The notes under the pieces were generated by a model. It had not been told where the DNA came from. It was given only the letters and a program-made list of their open reading frames with translations, and ran no database searches. A program made the position numbers and the translations under genes. This document shows positions 57,591 through 58,880 of a stretch of DNA of 61,105 bases, in pieces. The stretch's first letter is position 1; the number at the start of each line of letters is the position of its first letter. Source of the stretch: a virus; IMG/VR virus record IMGVR_UViG_3300006162_000242, positions 1-61,105 of that record. One strand, 5' to 3'.

Positions 57591-58880
57591 ATGGCAACAC
57601 TGACCAAAGAAGTTCGACTGATTAAGGCCGAGAACGGCATTGACCCCAAAACGGGGAAGCCCATCAATTCCTACAAGTATTGGAACGCCAAGCTGTATGA
57701 TGACAGCAATTGGAGTGCCGAGTGGGGTCGTGTCGGCTGCGAAAACCCCGACAGCGGAACATGGAATGAAAGCAAGAAAACGATGGATTCCGTTGTTCGC
57801 TCCAAATTGAAAAAGGGTTACACCGAGCAAAAGACAATCGGTGAGGCGGTCGTGTCTTCTGGGTCAGGTGCCCCCGTCAAAAACACCGACCTTCACGCCA
57901 TTGCCAAAGCTCAAATTCTCACTACTTCAAATCCCACTTTGGACCGTCTTATCAAACGATTCGTTGACGCCAACGTTCACAAGATTACGTCGAGCACCCA
58001 AATCACCTACAATACCACCACGGGGTTGTTCACCACTCCCCTCGGTATTGTCACGATGGACGGACTAACTGAGGCTCGTAATTTGCTTGCCAAAATCGCT
58101 CCCCTTGTCCGTTCCCGCAAATTTGGTCCTGACACCGACAAGATTTTGTGTGATTATCTCCGCATTATCCCGCAAGCGTTGGGAATGAAACGATTCTCCA
58201 CCGAGACGGTCATCCCCGATGACAATGCGGTGCAGAAACAGAACGACTTGATTGATTCTCTCGAATCCAGCTATCAGGCTATGACTTCGACGCCTGCAAC
58301 CAAGACACCCACGGGCAAGCCCCAAGAGCAGGTGTTCAAAGTGGATTTGGATATTCTCAAAGATGCTGCCGAGCGTTCCCGCTTGGAACGGTTCTTCGAG
58401 ACCTCGAAAAAGCATCAACATGGCTATGACAATGTGCGTGTCCGTGAAATTTTCAAGGTCACGATTCACGATATGGCCAATAGCTTCGAAGCCAAAACCA
58501 CTCCCATCAAGGAAGTATTCCACGGCACAAGCCAAGCCAACTGTTTAAGCATCCTTAAATCAGGGTTGAAGGTCAGTCCTCCCTCGACCGCTGCCATTGC
58601 AGGAAAAATGTTCGGCAACGGAATTTATGGTGCCATCAACTCCACCAAGTCACTTGGTTATACTTTTAACCGTTGGGGCCAAGGTGGAGTCGGCGATGCG
58701 GGATGGTTGTTCGTCTGCGATTTCGCAATGGGTAAGATTTACACCACCCAATCAAGCTGCAATAAACCATCTGGCTACGACTCGGTATGGGCCAAAGCGG
58801 GTTACAGTCTTGCGAATGACGAGTTGATTGTCTATCGCAACTCTCAAGCCACCATCAAATACCTTTTGGAGTGCAAATAA
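57591..58880 (+). CDS. WGR-domain poly(ADP-ribose) polymerase
   Basis: 429 residues. WGR domain about 28-80 (YKYWNAKLY, AEWGRVG, LKKGY). Helical regulatory domain about 115-230 (LDRLIKRFVD, PLGIVTMDGLTEARNLL). Catalytic domain about 250-429: FHGTS with His311, GNGIYGA with Tyr346, and NDELIVY with Glu411, the full H-Y-E triad of polymerising PARPs. The end SQATIKYLLE matches PARP1. It uses NAD to modify protein or DNA/RNA ends. The family order WGR-regulatory-catalytic is that of DNA-damage PARPs. Confidence 0.92.
   Translation: MATLTKEVRLIKAENGIDPKTGKPINSYKYWNAKLYDDSNWSAEWGRVGCENPDSGTWNESKKTMDSVVRSKLKKGYTEQKTIGEAVVSSGSGAPVKNTDLHAIAKAQILTTSNPTLDRLIKRFVDANVHKITSSTQITYNTTTGLFTTPLGIVTMDGLTEARNLLAKIAPLVRSRKFGPDTDKILCDYLRIIPQALGMKRFSTETVIPDDNAVQKQNDLIDSLESSYQAMTSTPATKTPTGKPQEQVFKVDLDILKDAAERSRLERFFETSKKHQHGYDNVRVREIFKVTIHDMANSFEAKTTPIKEVFHGTSQANCLSILKSGLKVSPPSTAAIAGKMFGNGIYGAINSTKSLGYTFNRWGQGGVGDAGWLFVCDFAMGKIYTTQSSCNKPSGYDSVWAKAGYSLANDELIVYRNSQATIKYLLECK

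What the first reader, a model, noticed from the sequence alone, without database searches (positions are those of the whole stretch)
57591..58880. Phage-encoded WGR-PARP with intact H-Y-E triad
The domain order WGR, helical regulatory, catalytic and the residues His311, Tyr346, Glu411 match DNA-dependent PARPs, rare in bacteria and more so in phages. Phage ADP-ribosyltransferases described so far (T4 Alt, ModA, ModB) are of other types.
Basis: partly seen in the sequence, partly recalled or inferred. Interest (0 to 1): 0.85.

Follow-up and report, generated by a model that had tools for sequence, protein, structure and literature searches.

The report
Phage DNA-break PARP with a partner
A large bacterial virus carries an enzyme built like the human DNA-damage sensors PARP1 to PARP3; such phage enzymes were already on record, but here and in many relatives the gene is followed by an undescribed gene for a winged-helix protein (a fold typical of DNA binding), which suggests that the two work together.

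Summary
ORF 57591-58880 (+, 429 aa) encodes a WGR-helical-catalytic PARP with His311, Tyr346 and Glu411 aligned to the PARP H-Y-E triad. Its family profile matches human PARP2 end to end (E 1.3e-42), and its AlphaFold2 model matches human PARP1 bound to a DNA break over the whole chain (Z 27.6). The novelty claim does not hold. Phage PARPs with H-Y-E were reported in 2014 (PMC4245714), 2021 (PMC7824862) and 2022 (PMC9503650), PHROG 23333 covers this architecture, and I found 53 relatives in IMG/VR.

Going further, I found an apparently undescribed gene pair. A winged-helix protein family sits beside the PARP gene, on the same strand, in 32 of 66 non-redundant PARP loci. It is downstream in all but one and is usually the next gene or within 3.1 kb. 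The pairing holds in 18 of 18 members of the window's clade and extends to three bacterial genomes. The window's own copy is cut off at its end (60745-61105). PARP phages also carry NadV (NAD+ salvage) more often than comparison phages (19/24 against 3/14).

Most likely this is a DNA-end-activated ADP-ribosyltransferase acting on proteins at phage DNA. Chemistry, target and role are inferred. The gene is a new member of a known kind; the PARP/winged-helix pair is worth pursuing.

The parts
57591..58880 (+). WGR-HD-CAT PARP gene, 429 aa
   Evidence: dN/dS
57600..57830 (+). WGR domain (residues 4-80; N26, K29, W45-G46-R47, K72, G76-Y77)
   Evidence: Pfam WGR 18.8 bits; invariant G46, R47, K72, G76, Y77 in A1; beta sheet plus helix in the model
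57888..58325 (+). Helical regulatory domain (about residues 100-245)
   Evidence: PARP_reg 22.5 bits, residues 146-226; helices 101-109, 115-135, 156-174, 180-192, 211-232
58338..58877 (+). ART catalytic domain (about residues 250-429); His311 codon 58521-58523, Tyr346 58626-58628, Glu411 58821-58823
   Evidence: PF00644 80.7 bits; triad
57553..57581 (+). Promoter-like TTGACT-17-TATCTT, 9 bases before the ATG, no Shine-Dalgarno-like sequence: transcript probably leaderless or nearly so
   Evidence: sequence and motif scan; inference
60745..61105 (+). Conserved winged-helix partner gene, cut off by the end of the window (N-terminal winged helix present)
   Evidence: A6 profile E 6.4e-32; family model of two winged helices
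8169..9146 (-). NadM-type NMN adenylyltransferase plus Nudix protein (NAD+ supply); functional link to the PARP inferred
22211..22663 (-). DarG-like macrodomain protein (possible ADP-ribose eraser or small-molecule hydrolase); functional link inferred

Best explanation
The gene encodes a DNA-dependent ADP-ribosyltransferase of the PARP1/2/3 type. The WGR domain binds a DNA end or nick (inferred from fold and conserved residues). The helical domain then stops blocking the NAD+ site (inferred from PARP1/2). The H-Y-E site transfers ADP-ribose from NAD+ to proteins at the break, including itself. In this phage lineage the enzyme works with the co-encoded winged-helix protein, as partner, acceptor or regulator (inferred from conserved gene order only), and NAD+ is replenished by phage-encoded salvage enzymes. 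The likely role is to mark or manage ends and nicks in phage DNA during replication, recombination or packaging. Shown: domain architecture, intact triad, fold, purifying selection, conserved gene pair. Inferred: activity, DNA dependence, target and role. Whether it makes mono- or poly-ADP-ribose is open.
For: Full-length sequence and fold match to DNA-bound human PARP1/PARP2. WGR signature G46, R47, K72, G76, Y77 invariant in eight diverse phage and uncultured-phage members. Triad kept in 40-41 of 41. Purifying selection. Winged-helix neighbour in 32 of 66 loci, same strand, downstream in all but one, from 1,750 non-redundant ORFs, with no further ORF reported below E 10. NadV in 19 of 24 PARP phages against 3 of 14 comparison contigs, Fisher p 0.0008; 9/12 against 3/13, p 0.017, within 80-215 kb. 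A bacterial relative from Herpetosiphon needs DNA and makes long chains (PMC4245714).
Against: No activity data for any phage member in what I read. WGR and PARP_reg score below the Pfam cut-offs in this protein. Some relatives outside the window's nearest group have lost the WGR arginine (V in 6 of 41), so DNA dependence may not be universal in the family. The NadV comparison is not corrected for kinship and the contigs are fragments. The winged-helix link could reflect co-regulation only.
Confidence: 0.6

Rival explanations
1. Host takeover: the enzyme ADP-ribosylates host proteins such as RNA polymerase or translation factors, as T4 Alt/ModA/ModB do; the WGR domain only localises it to nucleic acid.
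For: Proposed for jumbo-phage PARPs by Iyer et al. 2021 (PMC7824862). The promoter-like site abuts the start codon and resembles sites before other genes here.
Against: T4 enzymes lack WGR and regulatory domains; the whole DNA-sensing architecture is kept in this family.
Confidence: 0.25
2. Counter-defence or superinfection exclusion: breaks made by host nucleases or by a competing phage activate the enzyme, which modifies defence proteins or drains NAD+.
For: Break sensing suits nuclease-triggered activation. NAD+ salvage genes and macrodomains are common in these phages. Related WGR-PARPs lie on megaplasmids as well as in phages.
Against: PADLOC has no such system; its only hit to the PARP is a weak partial one to WGR_XIII. 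No toxin/antitoxin pairing was found. Draining NAD+ conflicts with NAD+ salvage by the same phage.
Confidence: 0.2
3. The enzyme ADP-ribosylates DNA ends themselves, as PARP3 does in vitro, capping phage termini or breaks against nucleases, phosphatases or ligation.
For: PARP3 mono-ADP-ribosylates 5'-phosphate ends, which then resist phosphatase (PMC5725667). The window carries a macrodomain best matched by DarG, a DNA ADP-ribosyl glycohydrolase family.
Against: The macrodomain lacks residues aligned to human TARG1 Lys84 and Asp125. No evidence of modified phage ends. The paper that shows the PARP3 reaction offers no physiological role for it.
Confidence: 0.12
4. An inactive or vestigial PARP fold used only as a DNA-binding protein.
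For: None beyond the lack of activity data.
Against: Triad invariant or nearly so, purifying selection.
Confidence: 0.04

Closest known systems
Phage WGR-PARPs of PHROG 23333 (Cellulophaga phi4:1 and 17:2, Klebsiella 05F01, Xanthomonas XacN1, Stenotrophomonas RAS14)
   Same: Similar length, WGR-HD-CAT order, H-Y-E triad; 26-34% identity over 94-96% of the protein
   Different: The window's clade is separate, seen only in uncultured phages, and has the winged-helix partner, which the profile did not find beside the PARP of these cultured phages where examined
Human PARP1/PARP2/PARP3 (clade 1, DNA-dependent PARPs)
   Same: WGR, helical regulatory and H-Y-E catalytic domains; fold match over the whole chain
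   Different: About 20% identity; none of the PARP1 zinc fingers or BRCT domain; activity unknown
Bacterial and megaplasmid WGR-PARPs (Pseudomonas pBASL58 and pMPPla107, Vibrio, Variovorax, Armatimonadota)
   Same: Same architecture; up to 34% identity over the full length; same tree
   Different: Carried by bacteria; only 3 of the bacterial loci examined showed the winged-helix neighbour
T4 Alt, ModA, ModB
   Same: Phage-encoded NAD+-dependent ADP-ribosyltransferases
   Different: R-S-E clade (PMC9503650); no WGR or regulatory domain (own knowledge)

Membership tests
Clade 1 DNA-dependent PARPs (PARP1/2/3 type) | WGR domain | tested here: met
   WGR signature 45-47; family profile covers PARP2 WGR; fold aligned from residue 1 to 4dqy_C; Pfam alone sub-threshold at 18.8 bits
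Clade 1 DNA-dependent PARPs (PARP1/2/3 type) | Helical regulatory domain between WGR and the catalytic domain | tested here: met
   Helical bundle in the model; PARP_reg 22.5 bits, sub-threshold, 29/41 family members match
Clade 1 DNA-dependent PARPs (PARP1/2/3 type) | ART fold with H-Y-E triad | tested here: met
   H311, Y346, E411; 41/41, 41/41, 40/41 in the family
Clade 1 DNA-dependent PARPs (PARP1/2/3 type) | Activation by DNA breaks | not testable with these tools
   needs a biochemical assay
Clade 1 DNA-dependent PARPs (PARP1/2/3 type) | NAD+-dependent mono- or poly-ADP-ribosylation | not testable with these tools
   needs a biochemical assay; the triad alone does not separate mono from poly
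PHROG 23333 phage PARP family | Full-length profile match | tested here: met
   E 2.1e-49, residues 26-428, profile 17-382 of 383
T4 Alt/Mod ADP-ribosyltransferases (R-S-E clade) | R-S-E active site without a WGR domain | tested here: not met
   H-Y-E triad and WGR present
TARG1-type macrodomain hydrolase (window macrodomain 22211-22663) | Catalytic Lys84 and Asp125 | tested here: not met
   Aligned positions are not Lys and Asp; residue numbers from established knowledge

The most novel reading that the evidence does not exclude
WGR-PARPs of phages and some bacteria form a two-gene DNA-break response unit with a dedicated winged-helix protein that is the main ADP-ribose acceptor, activator or DNA-targeting factor of the enzyme. 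This would be a prokaryotic counterpart of PARP plus accessory factor systems, fuelled by phage-encoded NAD+ salvage.
Probability: 0.3. Interest if true: 0.75.

Novelty: new member of a known kind. Interest (0 to 1): 0.45.

Why it matters
What viral and bacterial DNA-break PARPs are for is unknown, although their existence has been on record since at least 2014. A small gene family that keeps company with the PARP across deeply diverged phages and into bacterial genomes is a concrete handle. It names a candidate partner or substrate that can be co-expressed and assayed, and could reveal how PARP signalling works outside eukaryotes. The phage PARP alone is not a surprise to specialists.

Tried and rejected
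1) Window-specific novelty of a phage PARP: rejected. 2) DNA-level relatives among cultured phages: none by megablast. 3) Simple writer-eraser pair: a macrodomain lies in the window but 35 kb away, lacks the TARG1 catalytic residues, and macrodomains are common anyway (11 of 21 PARP contigs; 56% of jumbo phages in PMC9503650). In the contig of L029 one lies 1.3 kb downstream of the PARP. 4) Microbial PARG: no hit, but the control was silent, so inconclusive. 5) The neighbour group L036/L038/L041/L042 (A10) is not related to the winged-helix family. 6) Fold search with the winged-helix model gave only weak hits, best a tandem winged-helix domain of human Rpc5 at E 0.01; the winged-helix call rests on predicted secondary structure and this weak match. 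8) The paper PMC11662467 on NAD use by jumbo phages is not held. 9) No tRNA or Rfam match in the window.

Full report
Observation. The ORF at 57591-58880 (+) is real: 429 aa from an ATG. Residues 311, 346 and 411 are His, Tyr and Glu. Pfam finds the PARP catalytic domain at E 1.3e-22, with sub-threshold matches to PARP_reg (22.5 bits) and WGR (18.8 bits) in the right order. PHROG 23333 ('polymerase', that is poly(ADP-ribose) polymerase) matches full length at E 2.1e-49. phmmer against the PDB gives human PARP1 at E 6e-13. A profile of eight phage relatives matches human PARP2 from the WGR domain to the C-terminus at E 1.3e-42.

Structure. AlphaFold2 with 41 viral sequences gives pLDDT 86.5. 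The best Foldseek match is 4dqy_C, human PARP1 bound to a DNA double-strand break, E 6e-23. VIA-align 2 gives Z 27.6 over 373 residues, model 1-429. The catalytic triad is kept in 41, 41 and 40 of 41 viral members, and N26, K29, K72, G76 and Y77 of the WGR domain are kept in 38-41. Against its nearest relative (L001, 70% identical) dN is 0.26 and dS 2.2.

Is it new? No. Fourteen phage records hold full-length relatives at 23-34% identity, several annotated as PARP. Perina et al. 2014 (PMC4245714) reported PARPs in Aeromonas phage Aeh1 and Cellulophaga phage phi4:1. Iyer et al. 2021 (PMC7824862) named jumbo-phage PARPs, citing XacN1 BBA65562.1, which is the XacN1 gene recovered here. Iyer et al. 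2022 (PMC9503650) count PARTs among the commonest viral ARTs. IMG/VR gave 53 loci, many on contigs over 200 kb. Megaplasmids of Pseudomonas, Variovorax and Vibrio hold relatives at 31-34% identity.

Phylogeny. In a tree of 69 rows the window falls in a clade of 18, all from viral contigs, support 100/99. Phage, plasmid and bacterial PARPs are interleaved, so genes have moved between these replicons. The position of human PARP2 rests on a long branch and is not to be trusted.

A conserved partner gene. Neighbour clustering showed one gene family beside the PARP far more often than any other. In the window's clade all 18 members have it, on the same strand, 0 to 3.1 kb downstream. The next most frequent neighbour family is in 7 of 18, all closely related phages. 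The window's copy is the truncated ORF 60745-61105, E 6.4e-32. Two ORFs lie between: a small protein with CxxC pairs and a protein that looks membrane-spanning (by eye). The family model shows two winged-helix-like halves joined by a low-confidence linker (pLDDT 82). Another clade (L030-L034, L047) has a downstream gene whose N-terminal half is related (hhalign E 2.2e-6). A joint profile of the N-terminal domain, before any iteration, also hit the gene beside the PARP in L027, L029, L033, L044, L054 and in the bacterial loci L096, L099, L103. After iteration 33 of 1,750 non-redundant ORFs match at E below 1e-3 and no further ORF is reported below E 10. All 32 that share a locus with a PARP lie beside it on the same strand; 31 are downstream and one (L058) is just upstream. 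That is 32 of 66 PARP loci. L054 and L058 are the least certain members.

Reverse tests. Searching IMG/VR with the partner family itself returned 18 loci. Fourteen have the PARP beside it, one (L070) begins too near its contig end to tell, and three match mainly in the C-terminal half of longer proteins. With the second clade's version, 6 of 6 loci lie on PARP contigs already found. Neither version matched the phage collection, nor did the second clade's version match plasmids. Pfam, PHROGs, NCBIfam and PADLOC have no confident model for it. My literature searches found no description of the pair, but the library holds only open-licence papers.

NAD+ economy. The window encodes a NadM-type adenylyltransferase-Nudix protein at 8169-9146. 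NadV (PF04095) is in 19 of 24 PARP-bearing phage records against 3 of 14 comparison viral contigs (Fisher p 0.0008; 9/12 against 3/13, p 0.017, between 80 and 215 kb). Iyer et al. 2022 give 33% for jumbo phages. The comparison is not corrected for kinship, the comparison contigs were chosen through two other genes, and they were not themselves searched for PARP by profile.

Eraser? A macrodomain protein at 22211-22663 resembles DarG (PADLOC E 6.4e-13) and TARG1, but the TARG1 catalytic lysine and aspartate are not conserved in the alignment. It may act on small ADP-ribose compounds instead. No microbial PARG was found, with a silent control.

Mechanism. The best-supported reading is a DNA-end-activated ADP-ribosyltransferase of the PARP1/2/3 type, with the winged-helix protein as partner, acceptor or regulator. 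Architecture, triad, fold, selection and gene order are shown. Activity, DNA dependence, acceptor, chain length and biological role are inferred. Rivals are host takeover in the manner of T4 ARTs, counter-defence, and ADP-ribosylation of DNA ends as PARP3 does in vitro (PMC5725667).

Verdict. The PARP is a new member of a known kind. The PARP/winged-helix gene pair appears undescribed and makes the function of prokaryotic PARPs more testable.

Noticed in passing
window upstream regions, e.g. 57553-57581 (+): TTGAC-15..21-TAnnTT sites occur 20 times against about 5 in shuffled sequence, six within 60 bases of start codons. Only 6 of 60 longer ORFs have a Shine-Dalgarno-like sequence; several of these promoter-like sites end 7-10 bases before the ATG, so leaderless transcripts and an SD-poor host (such as Bacteroidota) are possible.
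   Followed up: partly
11443-12957 (-): RIIB-like protein fused to a phosphopantetheine-attachment (acyl carrier) domain; an ACP-like gene also lies beside the PARP in locus L053.
   Followed up: no
L018, L019, L020, L022-L024: A subclade of the PARP family has Val in place of the WGR arginine (sequences GVVG), while the catalytic triad is kept; DNA-dependent activation may be altered there.
   Followed up: no
51250-52791 (-): DUF2828/DUF7788 protein (phrog_850, RNA-binding protein; possibly Ro60-like); a von Willebrand A gene follows the PARP in XacN1.
   Followed up: no
window 35264-61104, ORFs of alignment A4: Unusual cargo for a phage: protein kinase, EF-Ts, Thg1 (tRNA-His guanylyltransferase), DnaJ, histidine phosphatase, DHFR.
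   Followed up: no
57112-57465 (+): Small protein with a type IV pilin-like N-terminal methylation motif just upstream of the PARP gene (matches; assigned to this ORF by eye from the sequence).
   Followed up: no
L060-L063, L092: WGR-PARP genes on megaplasmids of 0.8-1.06 Mb; on the Variovorax plasmid close to single-stranded-DNA-binding protein and Rad52-family genes.
   Followed up: partly
L029 contig (G004), 32160-33440 and 34773-35129: Strong macrodomain gene (E 8e-28) about 1.3 kb downstream of a WGR-PARP on the same strand.
   Followed up: no
L018-L024, L079; L036, L038, L041, L042: T4 Rnl1-like RNA ligase gene upstream of the PARP in several phages.
   Followed up: no
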